Source: Panicum virgatum (lineage: Eukaryota > Streptophyta > Magnoliopsida > Poales > Poaceae). From it: a stretch of DNA of 64,000 nt. The notes beneath the pieces are model-generated. The model had not been told where the DNA came from, ran no database searches, and saw nothing but the letters and a program-made list of their open reading frames with translations. The stretch spans positions 7,368,797-7,432,796 of the forward strand of contig NC_053141.1 in NCBI RefSeq assembly GCF_016808335.1, in the 5' to 3' direction. Position numbers and translations under genes: made by a program. Of this stretch, positions 2,111-62,441 are shown piece after piece. The stretch's first letter is position 1; every line of letters begins with the position of its first letter.

Positions 2111-3005
2111 AGTAAAGTAATGATCCATGTGCAGCGAAAGTATCGCGCCTGGTGCAAGAGTTGCCATTTTCCAAATGTGATGTCTGCTGGCGTGAGTTGT
2201 AGTTTTTTTATCAGTGGTTATGCCACGATTGAGTCATTGAGCTAGGACATGTTATGTGTTATGCCACATTTCGCCTTATGCTAGGCAAATGGTGTAAAAC
2301 TTTATTTATCATGCGGGCCATTAGGGGCCCAATGAAATGAATCAGGTGGGGGATTCTCTCCGCTCCCATTGACCCTAAAAAAAACTTTTATGCTTATTTG
2401 TTGTGAAACTATGTATAAGTCGATGATTCTACATACATATTGATAATCAAAGTTTCAAATGTTTCTCTCTCTCTCTCTTTTATCTCTCAAGAAATTAAGT
2501 TCTAGAGAGTTTGTTCTCTTTAAATGTCATATTTTTTTTCTGATTTAAGGATTAACATGGCTCCTTTAAAAAAAATATTTATTGGCAATGTAACATCTAA
2601 ACTACTAAAAAAACGTGTCATTTTCTCTAGAACAAAAAATGAGAGAAACATTCGTATCAGTTCGCTGCAAGTTGACTCGTTGACTAGCTAAGCAGTATAT
2701 AGTATATGTTATTTGTCATTTTGTTCCCGAGAAATGAAAATCTGCACTATTCATTGATATGAATATAATAAAGATACTACGTCATATGGTTTTATTTTAT
2801 CATTTATCAGATTAGTTGACCTGCTGACTTTGACAACAACTTAATTTAGGTGCCTGTCGATCTGTATGAGCATGATTGGACTTGGACGTCTATGAAGAGA
2901 AGACTAATCCTCAGCCGGGCCCTGGATCTGACGCAACTCCTAAAAAAATATGAATCCTCTGTTCAAGGATAGCCTCAGTTTTGAACGAAACGCACGCGGC
3001 AGAAA
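2111..3005. other. Distal upstream region of A1, non-coding
   Basis: AT-rich sequence with no coding frame. Bases 2300-2390 end in an A-run after a 'gggggattctctcc' stretch, which resembles the 3' tail of a plant LINE (weak call). Bases 2440-2640 are related to the region downstream of C1' (30690-30820) and C2' (54000-54140 plus 55098-55170). This shows that C' and A were adjacent in the ancestral array unit. Confidence 0.4.
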
Positions 3006-3152
3006 CTTGACTTGACCTAATAGTACAACCAAAAGAGCTACGTACAATTTCTATGTGCCTGAAAAGTCTAACTGCGATGAGGTCAAAGCCAAACTCCGTA
3101 CGCGTGTGTGCATCCCCAGCCTCCACTTGGAGTCTTGGATTCATTTATAAGT
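3006..3152 (+). promoter_or_regulatory. A1 promoter: double W-box block and TATA box
   Basis: CTTGACTTGACCT at 3006-3018 contains two TTGAC W-box cores, the binding site of WRKY factors. A TACGTA core follows near 3041, then TTTCTATGTGCCTGAA. TATAAGTAG lies at 3146-3154, about 187 bp before the A1 ATG, with no other ATG between. The same order of elements precedes the B genes and, with one W-box altered, the C genes. WRKY control is inferred from the motif. Confidence 0.65.
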
Positions 3153-3332
3153 AGAGCTCCAGCAGCAAAGCATCCACACACCACCGATCGAGCCATCAAG
3201 CACGAGAAATCACAGTGCTTGATCGACCGATCAAACTGCGATCGGCATCTGAAAAACATCAAGAAATCACCGGCCAGTCTCTGATTCTTGAATCGAACCA
3301 AGCTCGAGAGCCTCATCTCGATCGCCACGGCC

Positions 3333-3812
3333 ATGGCGTCAGCGTCTACCTCGCCTTCCCTCTCGGGCCAGATCCTGCTGCAGTTGCCGTCGCCCCGCGA
3401 GGGCCGGCTGGGCGCCACGCGCCAACGTTCTTCTTCGCACTCCATGGCAGTGGGGGCTTCGCGTGGCCATCCGCCAGCGCAAGGCGGCGGTGGTGGCGGG
3501 CATGTTCATGTCGACACGCTGAAGGCGGCGGCGCTCAAGGCAGTGGGAGGACCAACGCTGCTTCGACATCTGCCGGCGGAAGGCACCGGCGGCGGTGGCG
3601 GGAAAGTTCATGCCGCGCCGACATGGACGCTCATGGCCACGGCTGGACAATCAACGCCGCATGGTCATCGGCCGGCAGAAGGCGGAGGCGGCGCTGGCGG
3701 AAAAATTCATGTGGCGCCGACATGGACGCTCTTGGCAGTTGGAAGAACAACACCACCTGATCATCCTCCGGCGGAAGGCGGCGGTGGAAAAATTCATGTC
3801 ATTGTTTCATGA
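3333..3812 (+). CDS. Multi-Pep PROPEP-like precursor A1, 159 aa, four Pep-like repeats
   Basis: Predicted role: precursor of plant elicitor-type defence peptides. The start is the first ATG after the TATA box, in GCCACGGCCATGGCG context; an in-frame upstream extension lacks an ATG. Residues 1-45 are Ser/Arg-rich and include SPREGRLGATRQR, echoing the RLGAL module of the B and C' proteins. Four repeat units follow at residues 46-78, 79-111, 112-143 and 144-159. Each opens with HxPA(E/Q)G, a glycine run and K/H-hydrophobic-His (for example HRPAEGGGGAGGKIHV). Units 2 and 3 are linked by the spacer APTWTL(M/L)A. The last unit ends the protein. There is no signal peptide or membrane segment. The EG-glycine-H core matches grass Pep C-termini only partly (K-V/I-H-A/V instead of xHN/xHH), so the family call rests on cluster context, shared promoter and N-terminal similarity. 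A glycine-rich protein of other function is the alternative. Confidence 0.65.
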   Translation: MASASTSPSLSGQILLQLPSPREGRLGATRQRSSSHSMAVGASRGHPPAQGGGGGGHVHVDTLKAAALKAVGGPTLLRHLPAEGTGGGGGKVHAAPTWTLMATAGQSTPHGHRPAEGGGGAGGKIHVAPTWTLLAVGRTTPPDHPPAEGGGGKIHVIVS

Positions 3813-3869
3813 AAGAGAGCTAGGGAAAGTAAGAGAAACAAACCATTGTTTCCATGGAGGAACGGTTTA

Positions 3870-4925
3870 AACTTTGTAATTTTACTCCTGTAACTTTGAA
3901 ACGAACAAGCCGTTTACCCCTGATTTGTAATGTCGTTAGATTTGCTCGGATTAAATAGGAGGAAAAAATGAAAAAAATGAAAAAATACTTATGGAAAAGA
4001 CAGTAGTACCCTTCACCTTATCTTCTTTCCCCTCCCCTGAATTGGAGCAGGCAGCGGCGGCGGTTTGGAGGGCAGGCTGCGGTGGCACCCCAGGCACGGC
4101 CGTCGCAGCTTCCCCTCTCCGTCCCCTCCCCACCTTCCACTCCCCGTGACTAGGTGTCGGTGCGGACCCGTGGCCCGCCCTCCGGCGCGGCGGCGCCCAG
4201 GCGAGCGCGCGGCCCCCCTCCAGCGCCCAGGCGCGCTCCCGGCCCGCTGCAGTGCCCCTCCAGCGAGCGGCCCACAGCACAGGTGAGCCGCAACTCTCCC
4301 GTGCGCTGGCCCCTTGCCCAAACCCTAGCCTTCACATCTCCTCATCTCCATTGTCGCCGCTGCGATTTGTCGCCTGCAGTGAGTCATCGCTCGATTCCTC
4401 GTGTGGGGAGCTTCTCCCCCTCCCCTCGGCTGATTCCTCCCCTTAACCGACCTCCTCCCTTGCTGTGCAGGAGCCCCGGCGAGCCCCTCCCGCCGGTGCC
4501 GCCAGCCTTCGCCGCGCGCGTCGTCCGCCGTTGTTCCTCGCCGTCCGCCGTCATGGTGAGCTTTGTCTCGCACTTGAACACGTCGTGCGCGCGCCTTCCT
4601 CCCTGCTCCGACCTCGCGGGGCCGCGCTGTCGCCGCAACGTCGCGTATCGCGCGCGGGACCGCGCCGGGGGTGCGTCCTCGCCCTGGGTCAGGCAGCGCG
4701 CTGACCCCTTGGGCCCACATGTCAGTGAAGGTAGAGAGAGGGAAGCAGCAAGGGTAGACTTGTCCTTTTGTATAAAAGTTAACACCATTAGGTATACTTA
4801 ACAGATAAGGGGTAGATTCTCCCTTCGTTTTGAAAAAAGTGAGAGTAAAAATGCAAAGTTAAAAAAATGGGGGTAAAATTACCATTAGAGCTAAAAACGA
4901 GGGTAGAAACACCAAAGCCCCTTTC
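3870..4925. mobile_element. Pack-MULE-like element with captured 5' gene region, downstream of A1
   Basis: AT-rich ends of one Mutator-like family flank a GC-rich core. The right terminal repeat (about 4795-4925) is related to the intact repeats of the element at 54148-55088. The left repeat starts abruptly at AAACTTTG and has lost its outer ~60 bases. A3 lacks this element at the same place. The core looks like the 5' end of a housekeeping gene: telo-box AAACCCTAG at 4319, a GTGAGT donor at 4379, a TGTGCAG acceptor ending 4470, and ATG immediately followed by GTGAGC at 4553, a layout common in ribosomal protein genes. No complete coding sequence is present. It predates the 30 kb duplication. 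Confidence 0.6.
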
Positions 4926-6540
4926 ATGAAAATCAGAATTCCATCTGTCCCGTGCACAAATTAATTAACGATTTGTGAAATTACTAGGAGACAATAACCG
5001 GTGTTCTCTCAATGTTACATGTCATTACACAAGTCTGTCGTTTGTTTTATAGGTGGTAAAAGGCCTTATAAATTTTAATATAAGAGCGGGGCTTTTGTCT
5101 GATATAATTTTAAGGTAAAAATATATAAGAGTCTAGTTGGATTGTGAAGAGAGCATCAGGTCATTTACACTTTTATCTGTAAGTCAGCACTCACCACTCA
5201 CCACTATAACGGGTTGCTATTTTTTTTGTTTATATGCAAGAAAATACTCTACTCTGGCAAGAATTAAAGGACATAATTATTCTACGCGGGTACCAAGCAA
5301 AGAGAGTTGTCTTGCATCGGCTGCATCAATCGTATACAAATGAACAGAAGCCAAGTCAGTCAAACTTTCCTAGCTATACAGAGGTATATATGCTTGGTTT
5401 GAAGCTTGATAAAACTGTCGCCTCCTGGAGGTATTTTCAGATCCATACATTTTCAAATGGGCAAGCAGTCTGAAAATGGCGGATTTATATATGTTGTGCT
5501 GATGACGTAATACCACTACCACGAAAACGGTTTTGAAGGTACGGGTAAAAACCACATGGAAAAATTCTATATCACCCTTGTTAGACTTCTAGGATCATCT
5601 AGCTCAAGATTAGAACCACACATAGATATAGAATTAGGCTCATAACTTGGTCTTCTGCTCATCCATCACCTTTGTTCTTCCTCCGTGCTTATTTTGCTCA
5701 TGTTTAGGGCACAGAGAAAAGGGTGGAGTGCCCTTCCTGTGGTTTCTATGTTGTGCTGGAATTGGGCAGCTAGGATTTTTTGGGGAGAGGTTCATTAGCT
5801 CAAGATTTCCATAAGGACTACTCCCCTGTATATATAGTCACAGCACCACAGGGGGACATCTCCTTTTTGGGGTCTTCTAGGGCTCTCCAATCAAGAGCCC
5901 AAGTCCAATTTGAACTTGTACATTAATAGTTTTAGTCAGCAAATTTTTATCTTAATTAATGATGATGTCACTGCCGACATGATCAACCCAACAACCCTCT
6001 CACCTATGGTGGTGGGCTATATAACCCGCAACCTATGAAACGGTCTATATTACCCCTGAACTTTTCAAAATCGGTCAAATTACCCCCTAAAGCAGTTTTG
6101 AAAAATCATAGTAAATTACATAAAAATTATAAAATAAAAAATTCAATTGTGTTAGACTCCAAATAACTAGATTTACACAGTGAATATATAATATTGTATG
6201 TTTTAGTATATTTTTTGTTGTAGCTTTAGATCTATATATTTCTTCATAGCTTTATTCGAAACAGTTATCCACTAGGTATCATGGGTGAAAAATTAAACCC
6301 GAGATCGAACCCGAAAACTATGGGTGAGAAATTAACCTCGAATTTGAACCCGCTATATCTTAAGCCCACGAATATCCGACCCAAACCCGCGCCGTTGGCA
6401 TCGATACTGCAGCTGATGATCGAGTGACTGGATCAACGAACGCGATACATACAGTCATCGAATCTCGTGGTTGACCCGTTCAAAATCCAGCCTGTGGTTT
6501 TGTCCTTTTGAGAAAACGAACTGTGCGAGACACGCACAAG
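4926..6540. other. A1-B1 intergenic DNA with MITE remnants
   Basis: No gene. Bases 5040-5480 are shared with the A2 and A3 downstream regions. Bases 5995-6140 contain ACCCC-rich lines resembling a terminal repeat. Bases 6290-6400 look like the right half of a MITE ending in ACCCAAACCCGCG; its relative is at 61590-61740 upstream of B3. Bases 6400-6540 are conserved upstream of all three B genes. Confidence 0.4.
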
Positions 6541-6677
6541 CTTGACTTGACCTCGTACGTAAACCATTTCTCTGTGTCTGAACGCTCGTGTGTAAGCGGC
6601 ACGCGAATGTCACGAGCCCAAGTGAAAAGCTGATGCGTCGATGTCGATCTGCAGCTAGCTGCCCGAGACTATAAATA
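6541..6677 (+). promoter_or_regulatory. B1 promoter: double W-box block and TATA box
   Basis: CTTGACTTGACCT at 6541-6553 (two TTGAC cores), CGTACGTA just after, TTTCTCTGTGTCTGAA, then TATAAATA at 6670-6677, 104 bp before the ATG. This is the same element order as in the A promoters. Confidence 0.65.
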
Positions 6678-6773
6678 AGCAGCGAGCCATCACACCATTC
6701 ACCAGCAGCTCACTGCATCGGCTCAGCTAGCAAGGAATAATCCATCCAAGCACAAGCACGAGAAGCCACGGCA

Positions 6774-7097
6774 ATGGCGGCGTATGCGCCTAGGCCCCTC
6801 CTTCTCCAACTCCGGCGCTACGCGTCCCCCCGCCTGGGCGCGCTCCAGCGACCGTCGCCTTCCGCTGCTCGCTTGTTGAAGCCGAAAGCCGCCGCGGCCG
6901 CCGCTCTGCACCACGAAGCAGCAGCGGCAGGCCTCCACCTCCACGGCGGCGCCGCTGCGGCGAGTGTGCAGCCGCGCGAGGCGGCGGGCCTGCGGGCGGC
7001 GCGGAGAGGCGCTCGTCCTCCTCCTAAGGGGCACGAAGACCCTGCCAAGAAGAAGCCCAAGGAAGGCGGCGGCGGCAATGGTGGGAAGCACAACTAA
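6774..7097 (+). CDS. PROPEP: Plant elicitor peptide precursor B1, 107 aa
   Basis: Predicted damage-peptide precursor. PROPEPs are cleaved by metacaspases on cell damage, releasing a C-terminal peptide of about 23 residues that binds the PEPR leucine-rich-repeat receptor kinases. The protein has a basic N-terminal module (LQLRRYASPRLGALQR, residues 11-26), an Ala/His-rich middle (38-65), a basic stretch (LRAARRGARPPPK, 73-85) that could hold the cleavage Arg, and the Pep motif KKKPKEGGGGNGGKHN ending exactly at the stop (92-107). That ending is the classical PROPEP layout, and GGNGGxHN matches grass Peps. There is no signal peptide, as usual for the family. The ATG is the first after the TATA box. 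AATAAA lies at 7207-7212. This is the cleanest family member in the window. The exact cleavage site cannot be fixed from sequence. Confidence 0.8.
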   Translation: MAAYAPRPLLLQLRRYASPRLGALQRPSPSAARLLKPKAAAAAALHHEAAAAGLHLHGGAAAASVQPREAAGLRAARRGARPPPKGHEDPAKKKPKEGGGGNGGKHN

Positions 7098-7879
7098 TGT
7101 CGGCGCTAGCTTCTTCTTCAACCTTCCACACTGTACCGTCGTAAAGTAGAGTAGCCATGGAAGAAAGCAAAGCGTCCAACAAATGGAGTTAGATTAGTCG
7201 GGACAAAATAAACAAAACGTTTGTTAGACACTAGGTGTAACTGCTACATATACTAGGCTACATGTGTGTACCATCAGTGATCAAAAGAAGCTTTATCTGA
7301 TCTGTAAAATAATGCAAGCGTCCTATCATTTTTGTCCTTCGACGTAGCTCAATGCAATCAAGCATTGTGTTTGTCTCTAGAATGGTCCTCCTCATGAAAG
7401 CACTTAATTTGACGACTAAGTATTGGTAAAAAAAAATTAAAATGTCCGATTCTTAATTTGTGTATGCAAGTCTTATATTTGGAGCTTGCAGCTCGGTGGT
7501 TGAGCTGGAGAGCTGAGAGCGTTAAAAAAAATTATTCCGTGTTAAAAAAAATATTCCACACAAAAAAAAACATTCAAGTGTGTTCTTGGTTTCAAGATTT
7601 TATTGCAAGGAATACAGTTGTATAGTCGGATTTTAATTACGATATATGATTTTGAAAATATAACTGTGTGGTACCTTGACTGATAGGTACACATGTGACT
7701 CCTAATAGTCCCCCATTTATCACCCCTACGCTTGATTGCCTCATGCATTCTTATGAAAAGACACGATATTGGCTTGACTGTGTGTACTAGGCAGGCAGAT
7801 GTGTGGCAGATCTTGAAGATATTTCAGTCACCTAATAAAATTGATCAAAATTTCAGTCACGTGATCAATCGCACGGCTA

Positions 7880-8225
7880 GGCCTTGTTCGGTTATATGCG
7901 ATTTATTCCGGGCAGGGAATAATAGGTATAACACAAGAAACTCATAATAGGTATAGTATGTGATTAGGATTTATTCCAGACCGAAAACTAATTGCAATAA
8001 AATAGACTCATGCTAAATTCAACAAAAGACCGGAAATCAATCCATGAGTCGAGGGGTGTGAAATCAATACCGATCTCTTATTGTACATATTATGAGTCTA
8101 TTTTGTTGCAATTCGTTCATGGTCCGGAATAAATTCAGATCTCTTGTTCATTGTACCTATCATGAGTCTCTTGGTATACCTATTATTTCCGGCCCGGAAT
8201 GAATCCAATATAATCAAACAAGGCC
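7880..8225. mobile_element. Tourist-like MITE, 346 bp
   Basis: Inverted ends GGCCTTGTTCGGTTATA at 7880 and TATAATCAAACAAGGCC ending 8225. The flanks are cta/tta; in copy 2 they are a clean TTA/TTA, the PIF/Harbinger-type 3 bp duplication. The related C1' upstream region (near 16758) is an empty site, so it inserted after the C/C' split but before the 30 kb duplication. Confidence 0.75.
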
Positions 8226-9125
8226 TTATTCTTCTGACCTAGTCAAGCTACTGACGAATAATTCATGCCATCTATGCAAAGTTCACCATCCAGAGTGGTT
8301 CCTCTGCGTAGACCTGGACCTGAATATGACAACTCAATTATTCATCGGAGTGGTTGCATTGCTTGCATGACTGCAACCTAGGAGTCAGCAAGAGTTGCTG
8401 AATAGACATATATAGTTTCAGTGGTACTGTTCAAAACAGCAAAGAGTTGCAACTAAGTTGAGCAATATAATTTTCACTACACTCTTCATCTCTACGCAAA
8501 ATCCCAAGGACATCGTTTGGTGTTTCCTAGTACGTATATGAGTTAGCAAACACGTACATGAAGAACCGCGACGTCGTCAATTATTAGAGCTGACGACAGC
8601 GTATATAGTTTGCTAATCTGATCTGTAGCTGTCAAGGCTTATGACGCGCATGATTGGACAAGTGGTTACGATGATGACTTGTAGTCCTTCAGTGAGGTCG
8701 TTCAACATGAATCGGTAAACACGTATTAGGTGGGGAAAACAGGAAGACTTAATCAAGTCCACACCGAGACCGAGTTCAGCTGTGCAGAGCACAGAGATCA
8801 TACCGATGCTCTTTACTGTCTGAACGTTGTGCTAGGTACAGTAATTCATATTGGTAAACAAACGTAAATGTAGTGACGATAGGTTGGTGTGTAAAAAGTT
8901 GTTCATCAAGAAGCTAGGAAGTAGTATTCACTGCTAGTATAGAACACCTCCTTCTTGCCGGGTCTTAACATCTCGTCTGTACGGTCAGATTAGTATGAGG
9001 TCACGGGTGTCCTTGATGACGATGAGATGGAACAAAATTTTATGAGTAGTAAATTCCAAAAAGCAAAACACTAATAATACTCGTAAATGCTCACCTGGAG
9101 TAGCTTTCAGCCAAGACACGTAAAG
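8226..9125. other. Distal C1 promoter region, non-coding
   Basis: No gene. Bases 8620-8830 (catgattggacaagtgg, gacttgtagtccttcagtgagg) are shared with the region at 17110-17290 upstream of C1' and with copy 2. Thus C and C' were duplicated together with at least 1.3 kb of upstream DNA. Copy 2 has about 250 bp more near 38370-38650, which copy 1 lacks. Confidence 0.55.
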
Positions 9126-9301
9126 CTGACTTGACCTTGTACAATACTCCAGTACGTAGAGCCAACAATTTAATTTCTATTTGTGTCGTCTGAAGTCTGA
9201 ACACAACGTACTAATTGGGAGCGATCAAGTTAAACAAAAGCACACTACTGACCAGCTAAGACACTCTCCCTGCTGCTGCCATCCATCGACAGATTATAAG
9301 T
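9126..9301 (+). promoter_or_regulatory. C1 promoter: W-box block and TATA box
   Basis: CTGACTTGACCT at 9126-9137 keeps one TTGACC W-box; the first core of the A/B pair is altered to CTGAC. TACGTA follows near 9153, then TTTCTATTTGTG. TATAAGTAG starts at 9295, 133 bp before the ATG. Confidence 0.6.
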
Positions 9302-9427
9302 AGAGCTCGACCAGTATCTGAAAGTTCATCAGCAGAGATCGATCCATCGATCACACAGTTACGTTCACAGAAGAAGCCAGCTAGCTTGTCGATATCCAGG
9401 CAAGCAAGAACGCCCCCAGCCACGGCC

Positions 9428-9862
9428 ATGGCGTCATCGTTGCCATCGCCCTCACTCCCGCGCAAGCTGCAGCCGAAGCCCGTCGCCGTCTCGGCCACGG
9501 TCGGCGCCGCTGCTGCCACCGCGGCGTACTACCAGGACCCTGCAGGAGGAAGGCACGGCGATGGCATCGCCACTGACGGCGACGCTGCTGCGCTTGTGCC
9601 AAGTGGGTCCAACGCCGGCCGCATGCTGCTGGTGGCGGAGAGGAGTGGCTCTCCGGCGGCGAAGGGGCGACCCGGCGACTTGACGGCGGAAATGGGTGCT
9701 CGTGGACGCAGTGCCGAGCCAGCGTTGGTGACCAGCATGGCAAAGAAGAAGACGCCCAAAGAAGGCAAGGGCGGCAGCGGTGGTGACCACAATGTGGTTA
9801 GCTCTCTTGCAGCTGCTGGTGCAGTGGTCCTGCTCCATGCCAGGAGATGGCTGGTGAAGTGA
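9428..9862 (+). CDS. PROPEP: PROPEP C1 with C-terminal hydrophobic tail, 144 aa
   Basis: Predicted elicitor-peptide precursor. The Pep motif KKKTPKEGKGGSGGDHN (residues 106-122) closely matches that of B, but 22 more residues follow: VVSSLAAAGAVVLL then HARRWLVK. This short hydrophobic run capped by basic residues looks like a tail-anchor signal. If translated as read, a cut at the tail side would be needed to free a classical Pep. The middle (35-100) is Gly/Asp/Arg-rich with several Arg sites. The N-terminus lacks the LRY-RLGAL module seen in C1' because of a clean in-frame loss of about 60 bases after PRKL. The start is the first ATG after the TATA box, in GCCACGGCCATGGCG context; the in-frame upstream extension has no ATG. 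AATAAA lies at 9958-9963. The predicted protein is identical to C2. Confidence 0.75.
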   Translation: MASSLPSPSLPRKLQPKPVAVSATVGAAAATAAYYQDPAGGRHGDGIATDGDAAALVPSGSNAGRMLLVAERSGSPAAKGRPGDLTAEMGARGRSAEPALVTSMAKKKTPKEGKGGSGGDHNVVSSLAAAGAVVLLHARRWLVK

Positions 9863-9963
9863 GGAACCCGGCTATCGCCTGGCACCATGGTCCGCCGGCG
9901 GCAGAACGCGCCGCCGGCCGTGGCGCACCTGATGTTTGATTGTATCTTGATGTCCAAAATAAA

Positions 9964-10517
9964 ATGATTATTAGGTATTGCCAAAGTACTTTTCGTGATG
10001 AATACATTTTTTTCTGATGAAATACATGATGAATATATGAGGCATCACTTCTATATATTGCTACTGATGGTCAAAGCTTCGATGTTTGTCTTTCTTTCTT
10101 TTCTCTCTCATTCTCTCAAGTAGGAGTAATTCATAAGTTTCAGAATATGTTCTCTATGAATATTGCTAGCAAATACGCCCATGCGTTTAGCAGGGTTTGG
10201 TTCATATTCATACGTTATATCACAATACGATCCTAATTACAAGATTGTCTATTTTAGTTTTTCTACATCATAAAAAATTGAGGAAGCTAAGTTTCTAAAA
10301 CTTCCAAGGCCTTTAACATACTCATTTTTTTTTCTGATTCGGCTTAGTTTAATATGGGGTATGATGGTCTGCACCTAGTGTTGAGATGATCCACATGTCC
10401 CTGTTTAATAAGAGTGAAATGATTGTGGACAGAAAAAGAGAGAGAATTAGAGAAGTCATGACTTGTATAATTCTCTTTATGGTTAAAACTTATTTAGTCT
10501 AAATATCGTTACAATAT
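9964..10517. other. C1 downstream region, non-coding
   Basis: AT-rich 3' flank. Bases 10020-10150 are related to 30659-30790 downstream of C1', which marks where the C1' 3' insertion entered. No coding frame. Confidence 0.5.
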
Positions 10518-10522
10518 TGAAG

Positions 10523-10802
10523 TGTGATATCCCGACCCAGAGCTTAATAAGATTAATAGGATACTCATACCAATAAGTTGCAACTTCTTTTCCAGAAGTC
10601 GATCTCTAAAGAACTCTGAGGTTAAGCGTGCATGGCCCGGAGAAATTTGGGGATGGGTGACCGACCGGGAAGTTCTTCCCAGGTGCGCACGAGTGAGGAC
10701 AAAGTATACAGAAAAGACTGGTGTTGGCCTGTGAGGGCAGTCTATGTCCTAGAAAGCTGCCAGATGTAAGCGGGCCCGGCCTCGGGGAGGCAGGAAGTTT
10801 CA
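10523..10802 (+). mobile_element. Cassandra solo LTR with 5S rRNA-like sequence
   Basis: 280 bp starting TGTGATATCCCGACCC and ending ...TTTCA, flanked by the perfect 5 bp duplication TGAAG (10518-10522 and 10803-10807). Bases ~10570-10690 align with plant 5S rRNA: CATACC, then AACTCTGAGGTTAAGCGTGC, GGATGGGTGACC and GGGAAGT, covering the internal polymerase III promoter region. Cassandra elements are small LTR retrotransposons known to carry 5S sequence in their LTRs. Only one LTR is present, so this is a solo LTR. It is not a functional 5S gene. Confidence 0.85.
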
Positions 10803-11033
10803 TGAAGTAACAAGAGCTTTGTTTTGTTTAAATAAATCAGACAGCATAATTCTTTATTTGAGTATGGGTATAACTCTTGGTGATGTAAATATGGTCAAAA
10901 TAGAACTATATAGAGAACTTTGGAGCCATTTAGCTAATTAAAACAGAAGAGAAGAATATAATTTGAAGTGAATTGGAAATTAAATCATAAAATATGAAAA
11001 ATATGTATTTGTCGGGAACGTAACATCTAATAA

Positions 11034-13325
11034 TGTAACGTCCTAAATTTCAAATTAGGTACCTAAATAAAATTTATTAGATTCATTGCACACTCGATAA
11101 GGTTTTATTTAATTTATCTTAATGTTAGAACATTAATTGCGAATTTGAATAAATTACTTAGCCGTAAAAGAAATATAAGGTTACATAGGACTTGTGTATT
11201 CATGCTGTTTGCATTATTTTATTGATTTGAGGTTCCGATTGAATTTGAATTCTTTGTATTTAAATTTAAATTAAATTTGTTTGCCTTTGTATAAAAAACT
11301 TTTCTTTTCCTTTTTCTCTTTCACATTTCCCTTTTGGCCCAGCCCAACACTTCCTTCCTTTTCTTCTTTTCCTCCCCGATCAGCCCAGCGCAGCCGGCCC
11401 ACCCTTCCTCTCCCGGCCCGTCACGCTCCCCTCTCCCGCTCCTGCACTCACCGACGGGTGGGACCCGCCAATCAGGTCTGTCCCCTTCCTCGAGCCCGGC
11501 TTAGACTCAAGCTCGAGTCTGGCCGTGGTACGCCTCCCCGCGCCTCGGCTCGCACGTACACCAAGGCCACCCTCGGCTGCCTCATAAATATCTCCGCGAC
11601 CCCCCTTGACCTTCATCGACCGCAACCGCCGCCGCCTCTACCCCTGCAAACCCTAGCTCATGCCACCATTGGAGCTTGGAAGCTTTGGTGCCACCGTGAA
11701 GCTGCCGCTCCGGTGCCTCCTCCCCATCGTCAAGCCGCCCTAGAGCTTCGCGTCGTGTTGAGGACCCTCACTGGCCCCTTCCTCCCTTCTATCCCTCCTT
11801 CCCTCGGCCGCAATTGCTCGTAGGAGCGGGCCGTTCGCTCGCCGCCACAATCTATTAATCAATCTCGTATTTATCTTGTCATGCCGAGCGTTTTACTTTC
11901 TCTATATTTTCAGGTGATTTTCGGATGATTTTTCTTTCATTGCATTTGGTTACGATTTGGGTCGGATTTCTTGATAGGATTTGTTGCTAGGATCTTTGTG
12001 ATCTACCTTGGTTCAATCACCTCTTAAATATCTCGCGAATCGGCTGGGATTTTGAATTTTCCCAAAATTGTGTTCTTGAGAGGGGTGTTCGGTTTTTCTC
12101 TAGATTCACAGCGAGTACCCAATCTTTCTGCAGTACTCTTCTTGTATCTATAAGGTCTTTTCATTGTGCATCAAGGTCTTTTGGTTTTTGCATCTAAGGC
12201 CGAAATTTCTCTTGAATTCATTAAAATTTAAGTGATTAATTTGCATTAGAAGCTTCAGTTTGCCTCTTGCTCTCCCCTTCGTTTTTCTTCTCTGTTCATC
12301 AAGTCAGGGGCGAAGTCAGCTAAGAACGCTGCCGGGATCAACTTTATTATGAAAACCGGCTCGGCCAGCGCAGCAGAGCGTGCTGCCAGGGGCCAGCAGG
12401 CCGCCCAGCCAAAAGCCTAGTGCGGGGGCGCGGCCCACCAAGCACGCAGGCTTGCGGCTTGGTAAGTGAAGTTTTGTTGGTAGCTTTGCTAATCATTATT
12501 AAACCATCACATGCTTGATCAAGTGAAGTTTTGTTGGTAGCTTTGCTCGAGTGATTCGCCTTATGTTTGCTTCCGCTTAGTGTTGAGCTTTTAGCATTTT
12601 AGTTAATCTTTACTTCTGCTTTGCGTCGACCTTTCCTAACCATTCTTAGAGTGACCCTGTCACTAGTTGGCTTGCATCACCATGATGGTTAGAATGGAGG
12701 TGTGTCAGGTGGTAATTAGGGCCTTGTTCTCGTTGAGGAGAATTTTTTAAAGGCTCCCATTCACTCCCCTCTCCCTGTTCCGGTATTCAATAGAAAAATT
12801 CTTTGGTCAAATCTTTGTTCTCATGAAACGAAATATGACTTTTGAAAAGGAGTAAAAGAAGAAAATGATAGATTTTTTTATAAAAAAACTTAGTATAGAA
12901 GAAACATTCGACAAGCGCACAGCAAACTTGGGCTTCTTCCTGTTACTAGTAGCACAATATTCTTTTCTCTTCTAGTTTAGGCCTTGTTTAGATGAAACAC
13001 AAATTTTTTTTGTGATGAAATCTTGCTAATTTGAAGTACTAAATGAAGTCTATTTATAAAACTTTTTACACAGATGGGTTGTAAATCCCGAGACGAATCT
13101 AATGATGCTAATTAATCCGTGATTAATTAATAATTAGCGATGGTATTGTAGCATCACTGTTGCAAATCATGGATTAAGTAGGTTCATTAGATTCGTCTCG
13201 CGATTTACAGCCCATCCATGCAAAAAGTTTTGTAAATAAACTTCATTTAGTACTTCAAATTAGTAAGATTCCTTCGCAAAATTTTGTGTTTTTGCGTTTA
13301 CAGGGTGTGAACTAAACAGGGCCCA
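11034..13325 (+). mobile_element. Probable gypsy-type solo LTR, 3' end replaced by a MITE
   Basis: Starts TGTAACGTCCTAAATTTC, typical of long grass gypsy LTRs, with a TTTGTATAAAAA promoter-like site near 11286, a C-rich leader and the telo-box AAACCCTAG at 11648. The five bases before it (AATAA, 11029-11033) recur after the last CA (13324-13325). The better preserved copy in the second unit spans 41290-44181 with the same AATAA on both sides. No internal retrotransposon genes are present. The lineage (Tekay-like, from LTR length) is a guess, and a 5 bp match in AT-rich DNA could be chance. Confidence 0.5.
12980..13324. mobile_element. Tourist-like MITE, private to copy 1
   Basis: Ends GGCCTTGTTTAG at 12980 and CTAAACAGGGCCC ending 13324, with inner inverted blocks GAGACGAATCTAATGATG / ATTAGATTCGTCTCG. 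At this place copy 2 has about 350 bp of unrelated sequence, so copy 1 gained the MITE and lost that sequence. Confidence 0.65.
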
Positions 13326-13854
13326 AATAACAGGTTGGGCTCAGACAAGCGTTAAGCGTAATAGCGTATCAACCATTAACAACATAAAAGCCAATCAAGA
13401 AATCTCTCTCTTTTATGAAAGAAGCCAAGAACCATGAATAAACAAATAAATTATTGGTAGCCAAGGAGATCGATCCAACCACATGGCAGTTCAGTAAAAA
13501 TCAACAGCAAAATCAATTATACAGAAAGTCGTTTATTTTTCTGAAAAAACAACAGCTCAGAGCAAAAAGTCATTTACCATGTTTTGATACACTGGCAGAA
13601 AGTCTCAAAGAACTATTAACATGTAGGTCCCACATATTGTTTATGATGTAGTTTTTACAGAAAGAGACAATTAATTGGAAAAAATCGGTTTGAAAAATCC
13701 TACAAACGCGCATAACATGCTGATCTGGCTAGTTCAGTAATGGGAGAGGCAATCCGCACATCCAAGAACCATTAAAATGCTACCACTCCTTCCAGTTAAA
13801 AATATAGACATGATTTAACTTAAATGGATTACACAAATGAATTTTGATAGTTTT
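13326..13854. other. Non-coding spacer
   Basis: AT-rich and nearly identical to 44182-44710 in copy 2. The only open frame (65 codons from 13454) lacks any recognisable feature. No gene seen. Confidence 0.4.
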
Positions 13855-14442
13855 AGGCAAAGCTTCGAATTACACCCTCAACTATAGCACCGGATAACAT
13901 ATATATATAGGCCATCCAACTGTTGAAACCGGACAAATTTGGCCCTTGTGGTGGTTTCCAATGTGGTTTTATATATTAAAAAATTAAAGAAATTCTAATT
14001 AGATCTAAAAAATGAAAACTAATTCATTTTAAATCAAAAAAATTTAAAACTACTATCAATTTTTTTTCTAAAAATGTAGTCTATCTATTATTGCTCTTTT
14101 TGAATCTTGATCGTTAAAAAATAATAGATATAACTACAAGCAACCAAATATTATGAAAATAAAAAATAGATCTGAATAACTGGAAATTATTGTGCCAGTA
14201 GATAGGTTACATTTTTAGGAAACTTTTGATACCCATTTTATATTTTTTGATTTAAAATGAATTGCTTATGACTTTTTAGTTTGAAATTGAATATTTTTAG
14301 TTCTCACAAAATGGAAAACCACCTACAGGGCTAAATTTGCCTAGTTTCAACAGTTGGATGGCTTTTATTATCCGATTTTGTAGTTGAAGGTTGAAAATCG
14401 GACTTTTGTGATAGTTCAAGGGTGTAAACTGAATTTTTCCCT
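13855..14442. mobile_element. Long-inverted-repeat (fold-back) element
   Basis: Left arm (about 13855-13965: caccctcaactatagcacc, ggccatccaactgttgaaa) and right arm (about 14325-14442: tttcaacagttggatgg, ttcaagggtgta) are inverted copies around an AT-rich core. Inverted repeats of over 100 bp suggest a Mutator-type MITE. A half-copy of the same family is at 55500-55850. No clear target-site duplication. Confidence 0.55.
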
Positions 14443-14449
14443 AAATTTT

Positions 14450-14715
14450 AGTACAACTCAGACACTCACAACCCATGCACACTCACACCCCTATGAAGCA
14501 TATACGCAAAGCCTACTCCTATGAATATCTTCAAAGAATAAGCTAGCAAATTCTTGGGATTCACGAAGTCACCGCAGGCGCTTTGCTGTCGACGGAAATG
14601 TCGCCTACCACTGAAAGCACAACGTCGTTAAATCTTAGAACATTCGATCTCACAGGGAGTCGAATCTAGGATTTGAGGTGCTACCAAGGCTCCTATAACC
14701 ACTAGGCTACATGCC
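14450..14715 (-). mobile_element. tRNA-derived SINE (Au-like)
   Basis: On the minus strand the 5' head reads GGCATGTAGCCTAGTGGTTA (box A) and later GATTCGACTCC (box B), the tRNA-type polymerase III promoter. The body ends in a GTGTGAGTGTGC-like region and TTGTACTAAAATTT, as in grass Au SINEs. The same element is at 45298-45571 in copy 2. Confidence 0.65.
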
Positions 14716-14830
14716 TTTGGCAAGTGCATTTTGATAGTTGATTTCACTTACAATATATTTTTCCTAGCAATGAAAGAATTAATAATCATGCCCAATAATC
14801 ATACAAAATTATTGGACGTTGACAACGTGG
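14696..14830 (+). repeat. Direct repeat left of D1
   Basis: About 135 bp (aaggctcctataaccactag ... gacaacgtgg) repeated at 15873-16019 on the other side of D1, 1,177 bp away. It overlaps the head of the SINE. Confidence 0.8.
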
Positions 14831-15310
14831 TATGTGTATTTGTCACCCTCTCCTCTCTCTCTCTCTAACACACACCATCAGACAGAAGGAAGAAAGGAAG
14901 AGAGAGGTAAGGGATGTTGAAAGACTGGTGTCGAAATAGTGAAAGGAAAGGATGACGCATCGCGTTTTAACTTAGAAACAACGTTAAACTCAGCCAAAAA
15001 ATGCACCATATAAGCTAACTACCACTTCTAAGTTCTAACCGACTTGTTGCATGAATTGAACAGGTCTTGATAGTAGTTGGTGATCAAAATTCGACACAGT
15101 TTTATTTGGTGCTGAAGGCAGAAGTTATTCTTTTCATACGACTCGTCCAGAGGTGCTATATTTATCATAAAACTGACGTACTGTTAGAAAATTTGTGGAT
15201 TAAAGATCATGATGTTTAAATCATCAAATGTCATTCCAACGTTATCGGCCAATAGCTTTGAACTACGACACTTCCAGGACAGTATAGTAGGGTCGGCTAG
15301 CTTATACTAT

Positions 15311-15466
15311 AGTTGACCTTACGTTGCTCTCTACGTCACAACACTATAGCTGGTGAAGGTCAAACAGCAACTACGTACCTGGCCAGCTAGGACTAGGTAG
15401 GCAGATACCTACTCCTGCTGCATGCACCCTCCCCTCCCATTCGATCCAGCCATTGTTAAGTAGCGC
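15311..15466 (+). promoter_or_regulatory. D1 promoter with degenerate TATA region
   Basis: AGTTGACCTTACG at 15311 gives one W-box followed by ACGT cores (15337, 15377). The block that reads TATAAGTAGAGCTCCAGCAG in A1 reads TGTTAAGTAGCGCTCCAGGATCAGCAG here (from 15454), so the TATA box is lost by substitution while its flanks survive. D is probably expressed from a weaker or TATA-less start; this is an inference. Confidence 0.5.
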
Positions 15467-15497
15467 TCCAGGATCAGCAGCTGCATCCATTCTTCAT

Positions 15498-15500
<3 letters not shown>

Positions 15501-15537: not shown

Positions 15538-15539
<2 letters not shown>

Positions 15540-15540
<1 letters not shown>

Positions 15541-15770
15541 TGGCGTCGTCGCCTTGGAGCAGGGTACCCTGCTTGGGCATGCTCTGCTCCTGTTTCAGTG
15601 TCCATGAAGAAAAAGTTGAAGCTGGGCACGGGGAAGAGCCTGCTGCTGATGCAGGCGGAGATGAGTTCATGGCTCGGGGCTCCAGAGGTCTAGCTATAGC
15701 TGAAGGCAACGGCGGAAACGGCGGGATACATCATCTGGTTGCCGCCATGATGGTGTGGTTTTGCCGTTAG
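15540..15770 (+). CDS. PROPEP: PROPEP D1, short form with internal Pep motif, 76 aa
   Basis: Smallest member of the cluster. The N-terminus MASSPWSRVPCLGMLCSCF has three Cys within residues 11-18. An acidic segment follows (EEKVEAGHGEEPAADAGGDE, 23-42), then an Arg pair region (ARGSRG, 45-50) and the Pep motif LAIAEGNGGNGGIHH (51-65), whose EGNGGNGGIHH is the closest match in the window to maize Pep1 as I recall it. Eleven residues follow (LVAAMMVWFCR), mostly hydrophobic and ending in Arg, so like C the motif is not at the extreme C-terminus. The ATG directly follows a GA microsatellite; upstream in-frame sequence would encode Arg-Glu repeats but has no ATG. Expression is uncertain because the TATA box is degraded. 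Confidence 0.65.
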
Positions 15771-28551: not shown

Positions 28552-29037
28552 ATGGCGTCATCGTTGCCATCGCCCTCTCTCCCGCGCAAGCTGCTGCGTT
28601 ACATGTCGTCCCGCCTGGGCGCGCTCCACCGCTCTCAGCTCCTCGTGCAGCCGATGAAGCCCGTCGCCGTCTCGGCCACGGTCGCCGCCGCGGCGTACTA
28701 TCAGGAACCTGCAAGAGGAAGGCACGGTGACGGCATCGCCGCTGATGGCGACGCTGCTGCGCGTGTGCCAAGTGGGTTGAACGCGGCGGTGGCCGGCCGC
28801 ATGCTGCCGGTGTCGTCGGCGGAGGAGAGTGTGGTGAAGGGGCGACCCGGCGACGCGACGGCGGGAAGGGGTGCTGGTGGACGCAGTGCCGAGCTAGCGT
28901 TGGCGAGCATGGCAAAGATTAAGAAGACGCCCAAAGAAGGGAAGGGCGGCAGCGGTGGTGACCACTATGTTGCTAGCTCTCTTGTAGCTGCTGGTGCGGT
29001 GGTCCTGCTCATTGCAAAGAGATGGCTGGCGAAGTGA
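28552..29037 (+). CDS. PROPEP: PROPEP C1', long form with hydrophobic tail, 161 aa
   Basis: Sister of C1. Residues 1-36 keep the module LLRYMSSRLGALHR (14-27), homologous to RRYASPRLGALQR of B, so this is the ancestral N-terminus that C1 and C2 have lost. A Gly/Ala/Asp/Arg-rich middle follows, then the Pep motif KKTPKEGKGGSGGDHY (124-139), in which the final Asn of C1 is Tyr. The tail VASSLVAAGAVVLLIAKRWLAK (140-161) is slightly more hydrophobic than in C1, again with terminal basic residues. The ATG is the first after the TATA box. AATAAA lies at 29139-29144. The gene is intact, but a 10.7 kb copia element sits 381 bp upstream and a 1.45 kb insertion starts 168 bp downstream. Confidence 0.75.
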   Translation: MASSLPSPSLPRKLLRYMSSRLGALHRSQLLVQPMKPVAVSATVAAAAYYQEPARGRHGDGIAADGDAAARVPSGLNAAVAGRMLPVSSAEESVVKGRPGDATAGRGAGGRSAELALASMAKIKKTPKEGKGGSGGDHYVASSLVAAGAVVLLIAKRWLAK

Positions 29038-33281: not shown

Positions 33282-33764
33282 ATGGCGTCAGCGTCTACCT
33301 CGCCTTCCCTCTCGGGGCAGGTCCTGCTGCAGGTGCCGTCGCCCCGCGAGGGCCGGCTGGGCGCCACGCGCCAACGTTCTTCTTCGCACTCCATGGCAGT
33401 GGGGGCTTCGCGTGGCCATCCGCCAGCGCAAGGCGGCGGCGGCGGTGGCGGGCATGTTCATGTCGTCACGCCGAAGGCGGCGGCGCTCAAGGCAGTGGGA
33501 GGACCAACGCTGCTTCGACATCTGCCGGCGGAAGGCACCGGCGGCGGTGGCGGGAAAGTTCATGCCGCGCCGACATGGACGCTCATGGCCACGGCTGGAC
33601 GATCAACGCTGCATGGTCATCGGCCGGCAGAAGGCGGCGGCGGCGCCGGCGGAAAAATTCATGTGGCGCCGACATGGACGCTCTTGGCAGTTGGAAGAAC
33701 AATGCCGCCTGATCATCCTCCGGCGGAAGGCGGCGGTGGAAAAATTCATGCCATTGTTTCATGA
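33282..33764 (+). CDS. Multi-Pep PROPEP-like precursor A2, 160 aa
   Basis: Copy 2 ortholog of A1 with the same four-unit architecture (units start at residues 46, 80, 113 and 145). It has about ten residue differences: VLLQVP for ILLQLP, one extra Gly in the first glycine run, VVTPKAA for DTLKAA, GRSTLHG for GQSTPHG, RTMPPD for RTTPPD, and HAIVS for HVIVS at the end. Changes fall mostly between the repeat cores, while the HxPAEG-Gly-K-(V/I)-H cores of units 2-4 are unchanged, which hints at constraint on the repeats. The start is the first ATG after the TATA box. As for A1, the family assignment is less certain than for B. Confidence 0.65.
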   Translation: MASASTSPSLSGQVLLQVPSPREGRLGATRQRSSSHSMAVGASRGHPPAQGGGGGGGHVHVVTPKAAALKAVGGPTLLRHLPAEGTGGGGGKVHAAPTWTLMATAGRSTLHGHRPAEGGGGAGGKIHVAPTWTLLAVGRTMPPDHPPAEGGGGKIHAIVS

Positions 33765-36760: not shown

Positions 36761-37084
36761 ATGGCGGCGTATGCGCCTAGGCCCCTCCTTCTCCAACTCC
36801 GGCGCTACGCGTCCCCCCGCCTGGGCGCGCTCCAGCGCCCGTCGCCTTCCGCTGCTCGCTTGTTGAAGCCGAAAGCCGCCGCGGCCGCCGCTCTGCACCA
36901 CGAAGCAGCAGCGGCAGGCCTCCACCTCCACGGCGGCGCCGCTGCGGCGAGTGTGCAGCCGCGCGAGGCGGCGGGCCTGCGGGCGGCGCGGAGAGGCGCT
37001 CGTCGTCCTCCTAAGGGGCACGAAGACCCTGCCAAGAAGAAGCCCAAGGAAGGCGGCGGCGGCAATGGTGGGAAGCACAACTAA
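36761..37084 (+). CDS. PROPEP: Plant elicitor peptide precursor B2, 107 aa
   Basis: Differs from B1 by one residue, Pro82 to Arg (GARRPPKG), in the basic stretch just before the Pep. This adds a potential metacaspase-type Arg site at the position where processing would be expected. The C-terminal KKKPKEGGGGNGGKHN is unchanged and ends the protein. The 5' leader and start context match B1. Same predicted role as B1: a cytosolic precursor of a PEPR ligand. Confidence 0.8.
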   Translation: MAAYAPRPLLLQLRRYASPRLGALQRPSPSAARLLKPKAAAAAALHHEAAAAGLHLHGGAAAASVQPREAAGLRAARRGARRPPKGHEDPAKKKPKEGGGGNGGKHN

Positions 37085-39683: not shown

Positions 39684-40118
39684 ATGGCGTCATCGTTGCC
39701 ATCGCCCTCACTCCCGCGCAAGCTGCAGCCGAAGCCCGTCGCCGTCTCGGCCACGGTCGGCGCCGCTGCTGCCACCGCGGCGTACTACCAGGACCCTGCA
39801 GGAGGAAGGCACGGCGATGGCATCGCCACTGACGGCGACGCTGCTGCGCTTGTGCCAAGTGGGTCCAACGCCGGCCGCATGCTGCTGGTGGCGGAGAGGA
39901 GTGGCTCTCCGGCGGCGAAGGGGCGACCCGGCGACTTGACGGCGGAAATGGGTGCTCGTGGACGCAGTGCCGAGCCAGCGTTGGTGACCAGCATGGCAAA
40001 GAAGAAGACGCCCAAAGAAGGCAAGGGCGGCAGCGGTGGTGACCACAATGTGGTTAGCTCTCTTGCAGCTGCTGGTGCAGTGGTCCTGCTCCATGCCAGG
40101 AGATGGCTGGTGAAGTGA
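39684..40118 (+). CDS. PROPEP: PROPEP C2 with hydrophobic tail, 144 aa
   Basis: Predicted protein identical to C1, including the shortened N-terminus, the Pep motif KEGKGGSGGDHN (111-122) and the tail ending RRWLVK. The surrounding DNA from about 39231 to 41758 also appears identical to copy 1, while neighbouring A, B and D genes differ. This suggests recent conversion or selection for sameness. The polyadenylation signal is at 40214-40219. Same predicted role and caveats as C1. Confidence 0.75.
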   Translation: MASSLPSPSLPRKLQPKPVAVSATVGAAAATAAYYQDPAGGRHGDGIATDGDAAALVPSGSNAGRMLLVAERSGSPAAKGRPGDLTAEMGARGRSAEPALVTSMAKKKTPKEGKGGSGGDHNVVSSLAAAGAVVLLHARRWLVK

Positions 40119-45296: not shown

Positions 45297-45297
45297 A

Positions 45298-46438: not shown

Positions 46439-46439
<1 letters not shown>

Positions 46440-46669
46440 TGGCGTCGTTGCCTTGGAGCAGGGTACCCTGCTTGGGCATGCTCTGCTCCTGTTTCAGTGT
46501 CCATGAAGAAAAAGTTGAAGCTGGGCACGGGGAAGAGCCTGCTGCTGATGCAGGCGGAGATGAGTTCAGGGCTCGGGGCTCCAGAGGTCTAGCTATAGCT
46601 GAAGGCAACGGCGGAAACGGCGGGATACATCATCTGGTTGCCGCCATGATGGCGTGGTTTTCCCGTTAG
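46439..46669 (+). CDS. PROPEP: PROPEP D2, short form, 76 aa
   Basis: Counterpart of D1 with four substitutions: Ser4Leu, Met44Arg, Val72Ala and Cys75Ser. Met44Arg adds a basic residue (RARGSRG) just before the Pep motif LAIAEGNGGNGGIHH (51-65), which is unchanged. The tail LVAAMMAWFSR has lost the Cys. The N-terminal Cys cluster is kept. The start directly follows the GA tract. As for D1, expression is uncertain without a clear TATA box. Confidence 0.65.
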
Positions 46670-56847: not shown

Positions 56848-57330
56848 ATGGCATCGGCGTCTACCTCGCTTTCCCTCTCGGGCCAGCTCCTGCTGCAGGT
56901 GGCGTCGCCCCGCGAGGGCCGGCTGGGCGCCACGCGCCAACGTTCTTTTTCGCGCTCCATGGCAGTGGGGGCTTCGCGTGGCCATCTGCCGGCGCAAGGC
57001 AGCGGCGGCAGCGGCGGGCATGTTCATGTCGTCACGCCGAAGGCGGCGGTGCTCAAGGCAGTGGGAGGGCCAACGCTGCTTGGTCATCTGCCAGCGGAAG
57101 GCACCGGCGGCGGTGGCGGGAAAGTTCATGCCGCGCTGACATGGACGCTCATGGCCACGGCAGGACGGCCAACACCGCGTGGTCGTCGGCCGGAAGAAGG
57201 CGGCGGCGGCGCCGGAGGAAAAATTCATGTGGCGCCGACATGGACGCTCTTGGCAGTGGGAGGAACAACGCCGCCTGATCAGCCTCCGGCAGAAGGCGGC
57301 GATGGAAAAATTCATGCCATTGTTTCTTGA
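56848..57330 (+). CDS. Multi-Pep PROPEP-like precursor A3, 160 aa
   Basis: Third and most diverged A gene, intact. The four-unit layout is kept, with changes that make the first unit more Pep-like (HLPAQGSGGSGGHVHV) and unit 3 begin RRPEEGGGGAGGKIHV. Unit 4 reads QPPAEGGDGKIHAIVS. Extra Arg residues appear before unit 3 (TPRGRRPEEG), a possible cleavage context. The N-terminal SPREGRLGATRQR is unchanged. Survival of the four units in the older paralog, with about 20 substitutions elsewhere, supports functional repeats. No Pack-MULE lies downstream here, which gives the pre-insertion sequence for A1 and A2. Confidence 0.65.
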   Translation: MASASTSLSLSGQLLLQVASPREGRLGATRQRSFSRSMAVGASRGHLPAQGSGGSGGHVHVVTPKAAVLKAVGGPTLLGHLPAEGTGGGGGKVHAALTWTLMATAGRPTPRGRRPEEGGGGAGGKIHVAPTWTLLAVGGTTPPDQPPAEGGDGKIHAIVS

Positions 57331-62120: not shown

Positions 62121-62441
62121 ATGGCGGCGTATGCGCCTAGACCGCCCCTCCTGCTCCAACTCCGGCGCTACGCGCCCCCCCGCCTGGGCGCGCTCCAGCG
62201 CCCGTCGCCTTCCGCTGCTCGCTTGTTGAAGCCGAAAGCCGCCGCTCTGCACCACGAAGCAGCAGCGGCAGCAGGCCTCCACCTCCACAGCGGCGCCGCT
62301 GCGGCGAGTGTGCGGAGGCGCGAGGCGGCGGAGCTGCTGGCGGCGCGGAGAGGCGCTCGTCCTCCTCCTAAGGGGCACGACGACCCTGCCAAGAAGAAGC
62401 CCAAGGAAGGCGGCGGCGGCAATGGTGGGAAGCACAACTAA
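62121..62441 (+). CDS. PROPEP: Plant elicitor peptide precursor B3, 106 aa
   Basis: More diverged B gene, intact. The N-terminal module LQLRRYAPPRLGALQR is kept. The Ala-rich middle has small length changes. Val-Arg-Arg-Arg-Glu replaces VQPRE, and HDDP replaces HEDP in the predicted peptide. The final KKKPKEGGGGNGGKHN is identical to B1 and B2, so the Pep core is the most conserved part of the protein, as expected for a receptor ligand. The start has the GCCACGGCCATGGCG context. The 3' flank matches B1 for several hundred bases. Confidence 0.8.
   Translation: MAAYAPRPPLLLQLRRYAPPRLGALQRPSPSAARLLKPKAAALHHEAAAAAGLHLHSGAAAASVRRREAAELLAARRGARPPPKGHDDPAKKKPKEGGGGNGGKHN

What the first reader, a model, noticed from the sequence alone, without database searches (positions are those of the whole stretch)
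3333..3812. A genes encode a multi-Pep precursor with four tandem Pep-like units
Seen: residues 46-159 of A1 consist of four units of ~33 residues, each with HxPA(E/Q)G, a Gly run and K/H-hydrophobic-His, two joined by APTWTL spacers. The layout is kept in A2 and A3. Classical PROPEPs hold one Pep at the C-terminus. A precursor with several Pep-like repeats would resemble polyprotein peptide hormones, and I do not know it as described for this family.
Basis: partly seen in the sequence, partly recalled or inferred. Interest (0 to 1): 0.9.

Follow-up and report, generated by a model that had tools for sequence, protein, structure and literature searches.

The report
Switchgrass gene with four Pep-like repeats
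A gene in what is very likely switchgrass, lying in a predicted cluster of plant-alarm-peptide genes, encodes one protein with four segments in a row that resemble known grass alarm peptides, so it would likely release several signals at once when tissue is damaged, a layout that I recall as already reported for maize and other grasses.

Summary
A1 (3333-3812, 159 aa) carries four Pep-like units closing at His59, 93, 126 and 155. A matrix made only from five published grass Peps finds all four; 0 of 900 shuffles of A1-A3 gave two. A2 and A3 keep the layout, with unit 4 weak in A3.

The window is very likely switchgrass chromosome 6K, inside a PROPEP cluster that also holds classical single-Pep genes (B), tailed ones (C, D) and, just outside, two-unit genes. 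A shares a promoter box with C and a weak N-terminal similarity with other PROPEPs.

Of 64 related grass proteins, 55 have two or more units. An Oryza relative ends in a unit matching the active OsPep3 at 21 of 23 residues, with another unit before it.

Novelty is limited: I recall, but could not open, Poretsky et al. 2020, whose abstract says maize and other grass precursors contain multiple active Peps. The A type, with up to four full-length units and none ending the protein, is a Paniceae subtype. Release and activity are untested.

The parts
3333..3812 (+). A1, precursor of 159 aa with four Pep-like units
3444..3509 (+). A1 unit 1 (residues 38-59, ends HVH; one Gly short of a published Pep core)
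   Evidence: 14.4 bits
3543..3611 (+). A1 unit 2 (residues 71-93, ends KVH; full-length core)
   Evidence: 11.0 bits
3642..3710 (+). A1 unit 3 (residues 104-126, ends KIH; full-length core)
   Evidence: 18.3 bits
3735..3797 (+). A1 unit 4 (residues 135-155, ends KIH; core 2-3 residues short; four residues follow before the stop)
   Evidence: 12.9 bits
3147..3160 (+). TATA-like box TTATAAGTAGAGCT upstream of A1; the same box in A2, A3, the 6N copy and C1, one base different in C2, absent from the aligned B1 stretch
33282..33764 (+). A2, 160 aa, four units
56848..57330 (+). A3, 160 aa, three strong units and a weak fourth
6774..7097 (+). B1, classical PROPEP, one Pep ending the protein (KKKPKEGGGGNGGKHN)
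36761..37084 (+). B2, as B1
62121..62441 (+). B3, as B1
9428..9862 (+). C1, Pep KTPKEGKGGSGGDHN followed by a 22-residue tail
28552..29037 (+). C2, as C1 (ends DHY before the tail)
39684..40118 (+). C3, protein identical to C1
50332..50877 (+). C4, frame leaves the C sequence before the Pep; no Pep in it
15540..15770 (+). D1, 76 aa, Pep-like EGNGGNGGIHH with an 11-residue tail
46439..46669 (+). D2, as D1

Best explanation
A1 encodes a likely PROPEP-family precursor with four tandem Pep-like units, and it is predicted to work as a damage-triggered polyprotein: metacaspases would likely cut after basic residues ahead of the units, a trimming step would remove the residues after each closing His, and the freed Peps would activate PEPR receptors. 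Shown here: the four units, their match to published grass Peps, the cluster of Pep-bearing genes around them, purifying selection on the cores against near-neutral spacers, and 2-5 units in 55 of 64 related grass proteins. Inferred: cleavage, trimming, release and receptor activation. Units 2 and 3, and unit 1 of A2 and A3, have the full-length core (E/Q)GxGGxGGxxH and are the likeliest active peptides; unit 4, short by 2-3 residues, is the likeliest to be weak or inactive.
For: Match to published Peps beyond chance. Cluster with single-Pep, tailed and two-unit genes in and right of the window. Promoter box shared with C1 and, one base off, C2; GCCACGGC-N-ATGGC start context shared by the seven aligned stretches. 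N-terminal match to other PROPEPs, HHalign score 19.4, above 200 of 200 column shuffles, best of which 16.8. dN/dS 0.27 in cores, 0.92 in spacers, permutation p 0.0035; the order holds in 5 of 5 leave-one-out runs, p 0.001-0.0425. Multi-unit relatives in many grasses. P0061 of Oryza glumipatula ends in a unit 21 of 23 identical to the active OsPep3, behind another full-length unit. A tailed PROPEP with a bioactive Pep is published, OsPROPEP7. The model is unstructured, mean pLDDT 39, as reported for Propep1.
Against: No expression, peptide or activity data. All 41 A-type units counted are followed by more residues, so an extra C-terminal cut is needed. Basic residues ahead of the unit are rarer in A-type (31 of 41) than in other precursors (70 of 71 internal, 49 of 49 last), and A1 has Gln106 where A2 and A3 have Arg. 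Unit 4 alone shows dN 0.104 and dS 0.104, no sign of constraint. Part of the core-spacer contrast lies in dS, 0.25 against 0.12, and the bootstrap ranges touch, 0.14-0.63 against 0.59-1.65. The frame of one 6N copy departs from the family in unit 3, and P0003 departs in unit 4. The N-terminal match has an HHalign probability of only 32%.
Confidence: 0.66

Rival explanations
1. Only one or two units of A are active Peps; the others are weak, inactive or act as competitive antagonists, so A tunes rather than multiplies the signal.
For: Unit 4 is short and shows no constraint on its own. Unit scores differ from 10.6 to 21.6 bits. I recall a maize antagonist, ZmPep5a, from the abstract of Poretsky et al. 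2020 (not seen in a call). A fungal Pep mimic that binds ScPEPR1 without activating it is published (PMC9298926, passages).
Against: Cores as a group are constrained. Units 1-3 carry the residues of active OsPep3 in P-A-(E/Q)-G, the Gly pairs and hydrophobic-His.
Confidence: 0.2
2. The units are glycine-run repeats that arose by slippage and drift, without a function of their own.
For: GC-rich Gly codons, a 99-nt tandem period, unit number and Gly-run length that vary among copies, and frame departures inside units in two relatives.
Against: 0 of 900 shuffles gave two units; cores are more constrained than spacers; closing His kept in 40 of 41 A-type units, Tyr in the other.
Confidence: 0.08
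3. A is a glycine- and histidine-rich protein of another role, such as metal binding or cell-wall association, that resembles Peps by convergence.
For: Regular K/H-x-His endings and Gly runs; no Pfam family.
Against: Cluster, shared promoter box, PROPEP-like N-terminus, and an OsPep3-like unit in an Oryza protein of the same design. B1 and D1 of the cluster also hit no Pfam family, and C1 only one below its cut-off.
Confidence: 0.04

Closest known systems
Multi-Pep PROPEPs of maize and other Poaceae (Poretsky et al. 2020; recalled abstract, paper not seen)
   Same: Several Pep units in one grass precursor without a signal peptide.
   Different: A-type holds up to four full-length cores (four in P0013 of Urochloa, three in A2, A3 and other Urochloa copies), while the maize and sorghum proteins seen here have short internal cores and one full-length last unit (P0030 sssL, P0025 ssL). 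Whether A-type genes are treated in that paper I could not check.
OsPROPEP3 / OsPep3 of rice
   Same: Unit core PAEGxGGxGGxVH; a tandem PROPEP locus on rice chromosome 8; an Oryza glumipatula relative also has a second unit.
   Different: Rice work assigns it one Pep (passages and section 6 of PMC9055822); the O. sativa protein itself was not in hand.
AtPROPEP1 of Arabidopsis
   Same: Precursor described as lacking a signal peptide, Gly-rich peptide, metacaspase release.
   Different: One Pep of 23 aa at the end of a 92-aa precursor; Brassicaceae motif ends in Asn.
HypSys precursors of Solanaceae
   Same: One defence precursor yielding three peptide signals (PMC11371470, passages).
   Different: Carries a signal peptide, hydroxyproline-rich, unrelated sequence.

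Membership tests
Grass PROPEP family | Poaceae Pep core, glycine-rich with terminal His | tested here: met
   Matrix of published grass Peps finds four, four and three units in A1, A2, A3
Grass PROPEP family | Location in a PROPEP gene cluster | tested here: met
   B, C, D genes in the window and further Pep-bearing genes to its right
Grass PROPEP family | N-terminal part like other PROPEPs | tested here: met
   HHalign score 19.4 against a best of 16.8 in 200 shuffles; weak, probability 32%
Grass PROPEP family | No signal peptide | not tested
   No predictor was run; by eye the first 40 residues show no hydrophobic run longer than five residues
Grass PROPEP family | Basic residue ahead of the Pep for metacaspase | tested here: inconclusive
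   31 of 41 A-type units have R/K at -15 to -5; 70 of 71 and 49 of 49 in other precursors
Grass PROPEP family | PEPR-dependent elicitor activity | not testable with these tools
   Needs synthetic peptides and pepr mutants
Classical single-Pep PROPEP (Arabidopsis layout) | One Pep that ends the protein | tested here: not met
   Four units, and four residues after the last closing His in A1-A3; B1-B3 do meet it
Multi-Pep grass PROPEPs | Two or more Pep units in one precursor | tested here: met
   Sequence and matrix; the family itself is recalled, its paper not seen
Multi-Pep grass PROPEPs | More than one unit active | not testable with these tools
   Needs peptide assays

The most novel reading that the evidence does not exclude
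A-type genes are a Paniceae polyprotein branch of the PROPEP family in which up to four full-length Peps are strung together and none is made by the protein's own C-terminus, so that release needs a second, C-terminal processing step not yet described in the Pep pathway, and one cut precursor delivers a mixed dose of several Peps.
Probability: 0.3. Interest if true: 0.62.

Novelty: new member of a known kind. Interest (0 to 1): 0.42.

Why it matters
If several units of one precursor are active, gene number understates the Pep repertoire of grasses, and knockouts or screens that assume one peptide per PROPEP misjudge redundancy. The rice section read here pairs one Pep with each precursor, while an OsPep3-like Oryza protein has a second full-length unit. 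The switchgrass cluster puts precursors with one, two and four units side by side on one chromosome, which would make dose and tuning by unit number directly testable in a perennial grass crop.

Tried and rejected
Chance glycine-rich low complexity was rejected by the shuffles and by the core-spacer contrast. A CEP- or PIP-type peptide was considered from memory because of the His end and rejected: units 2 and 3 of A1 align with OsPep2 and OsPep3 without gaps. A Pfam identity was sought for A1 and six other proteins: none reached a cut-off. The structure model gave nothing usable (mean pLDDT 39.0, pTM 0.13, no DSSP elements), so no fold search was run. Literature: ten searches; no listing or passage that I saw describes several Peps in one PROPEP, but I read few papers and the most relevant one is not held, so I make no claim that it is absent from print.

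Limits of the counts: the 64 relatives (P0002-P0065, all that searches returned) came from searches seeded with A1 and then with multi-unit proteins, and include weak hits (cut E 1, E 10); two of the three searches scored only the roughly 8,000 candidates sharing most words. So 55 of 64 is not an unbiased share of grass PROPEPs. The unit patterns miss some units that can be seen by eye (A3 unit 4, the first unit of P0041, the last two of P0004), so unit counts are lower bounds. The dN/dS counts pool related pairs and are not a codon-model test. In one search the last residues of the 6N copy N2 were misaligned; one search repeated the test with that copy cut earlier.

Full report
What is there. 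A1 is an open frame of 159 aa at 3333-3812. Four stretches of P-A-(E/Q)-G, a glycine run and x-hydrophobic-His close at His59, 93, 126 and 155. A matrix built only from five published grass Peps scores them at 14.4, 11.0, 18.3 and 12.9 bits. In 900 shuffles of A1-A3, 14 gave one such unit of 10 bits or more and none gave two. A2 has four units; A3 has three strong ones and a weak fourth.

Where it is. The window is G000:C6:7368797-7432796. C6 is 48,487,553 bases, exactly the contig length given for the Panicum virgatum protein PVAP13_6KG074500 (P0035). That protein's two pieces lie at C6:7472960 and 7473864 with 95% and 100% identity. So the window is very likely switchgrass chromosome 6K. Two more A copies lie on C15, very likely 6N: one of them gives the same protein as PVAP13_6NG077600 (P0006), although the C15 length, 53,460,749, differs from the 53,464,807 listed for that record.

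The neighbourhood is a PROPEP cluster. B1-B3 are classical and end in KEGGGGNGGKHN. C1-C3 hold KEGKGGSGGDH(N/Y) followed by a 22-residue tail; C4 has lost its Pep. D1-D2 hold EGNGGNGGIHH with an 11-residue tail. In 70 kb to the right of the window lie three two-unit genes ending in GGKVH, PVAP13_6KG074500 and a second stretch like its end with stops upstream, a stretch ending RPKEGSGGGGGVHH, and a B-like end with a stop in frame; nothing was found by the same search in 50 kb to the left. Rice has a tandem locus OsPROPEP2/6/5/3/7/4 on chromosome 8 (PMC10600118, passages). That panicoid chromosome 6 corresponds to rice 8 is recalled. A1-A3, the 6N copy and C1 share the box TTATAAGTAGAGCT, C2 differs in one base, and the aligned B1 stretch lacks it; all seven aligned stretches share GCCACGGC-N-ATGGC at the start. 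The A N-terminus matches other PROPEP N-termini weakly (HHalign score 19.4, probability 32%), but above all of 200 column-shuffled controls.

Selection. With A1-A3 and the two 6N copies, pooled Nei-Gojobori counts give dN/dS 0.27 in unit cores and 0.92 in spacers, and 0.82 in the N-terminal part. Shuffling codon columns between core and spacer gives p 0.0035. Leaving out any one copy keeps the order in 5 of 5 runs (core 0.22-0.39, spacer 0.76-1.15, p 0.001-0.0425). The difference in dN alone has p 0.015. Against this: dS is higher in cores (0.25 against 0.12), so part of the contrast is in dS; bootstrap ranges touch (0.14-0.63 and 0.59-1.65); five related copies are few; and unit 4 alone shows dN 0.104 and dS 0.104.

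Relatives. Three searches returned 64 proteins besides A1. By pattern, 55 of 64 have two or more units, 25 three or more, 31 at least two full-length ones and 7 at least three full-length ones. Proteins with two or more countable units come from Panicum, Urochloa, Digitaria, Paspalum, Setaria, Dichanthelium, Sorghum, Miscanthus, Zea, Stipagrostis (Aristidoideae), Lolium, Festuca, Puccinellia, Avena, Hordeum, Aegilops and Oryza; the one Brachypodium protein has a single countable unit. In the A type, three or four full-length cores are counted in A2, A3 and four Urochloa humidicola proteins (P0007, P0009, P0010, P0013), two in A1 and in P. hallii P0005, and one in Digitaria P0014, where two further units look altered; all named species of the A type are Paniceae, of which three were looked up. 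The 6N copy in L004 has a further, N-terminal short unit, KEGGGGEVH. In Oryza glumipatula P0061 (E 4e-5) the last unit is ADSAPQRPGAPAEGAGGNGGDVH, 21 of 23 identical to the active OsPep3, and a full-length unit PREGSGGRGGVIH stands before it. The Oryza sativa protein itself was not in hand.

How it would work. PROPEP1 lacks a signal peptide and is cut by Ca2+-activated type II metacaspases after Arg69; wheat Peps are likewise cut at a conserved Arg (PMC8591736 and PMC13157962, passages). A1 has R44, K69 and R138 ahead of units 1, 2 and 4, and Q106 ahead of unit 3 where A2 and A3 have Arg. Across A-type units 31 of 41 have a basic residue at -15 to -5, fewer than in other precursors (70 of 71 internal, 49 of 49 last). 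All 41 A-type units are followed by more residues, Ala or Val in 35 of 41, so a trimming step after His is needed. OsPROPEP7 shows that an accepted rice PROPEP can carry residues beyond its Pep, and its synthetic Pep is active. Cutting, trimming, release and perception of A units are inferred.

What is known. A 2024 review lists one mature peptide for pro-PEP1 and three for HypSys (PMC11371470, passages). A 2026 review describes Propep1 as releasing Pep1 and notes in general that some phytocytokine precursors give multiple peptide forms (PMC13157962, passages). A commentary on Dong et al. 2025 speaks of 10 wheat PROPEPs giving 7 Peps (PMC12366547, whole text; the paper itself is not held). A rice paper names one Pep for each of seven OsPROPEPs (PMC9055822, section 6). 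A 2015 survey of PROPEPs places the Pep at the C-terminal end (PMC4526913, first part of the results and passages). But I recall the abstract of Poretsky et al. 2020 as stating that ZmPROPEP and other poaceous precursors contain multiple active Peps, and that ZmPep5a may be an antagonist. That paper is not held; only its title was seen in reference lists. On that recollection the layout is known, and A is a new member, or at most a Paniceae subtype, of a known kind. I scored interest accordingly.

Noticed in passing
window 2161-19115 and 32088-49923: A block of about 30 kb holding A, B, C and D is duplicated in tandem, in pieces of 88-98% identity; partial further copies of A and B lie at 56485-57392 and 61649-62857.
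   Followed up: partly
window 50332-50877: C4 is 99% like C2 over its first part (28171-28913 against 49951-50694) and then leaves the C sequence, so its frame has no Pep; a piece KIKKTPKEGKG lies in another frame near 50964.
   Followed up: no
window 9428-9862, 28552-29037, 39684-40118: C1-C3 carry a 22-residue tail after the Pep that looks hydrophobic with basic residues at its end, possibly a membrane anchor (by eye).
   Followed up: no
window 20515-26260, minus strand: Long open frames that look like a Ty1/copia-type retrotransposon (integrase- and gag-like, by eye), beside the second C gene.
   Followed up: no
L005 1501-1929 (G000:C15): The frame of this 6N copy departs from the family inside unit 3, while the near-identical P0008 (111 aa, ena) keeps the unit; real variation or a sequencing error in a G run.
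   Followed up: partly
L004 1363-1962 (G000:C15): The other 6N copy reads from an upstream ATG and has an extra N-terminal short unit, KDLKEGGGGEVH.
   Followed up: no
L011, L012, L014, L015 (G000:C6:7432797-7482796): The PROPEP cluster goes on for about 41 kb right of the window, with three two-unit genes (two of them in opposite orientation) and PVAP13_6KG074500 split in two pieces about 0.7 kb apart, perhaps by an intron.
   Followed up: partly
P0036, P0044, P0041, P0045: Public records name such precursors 'PH domain leucine-rich repeat-containing protein phosphatase 1-like' (Panicum miliaceum) or 'translation initiation factor IF-2-like' (Lolium rigidum); both names look wrong.
   Followed up: no
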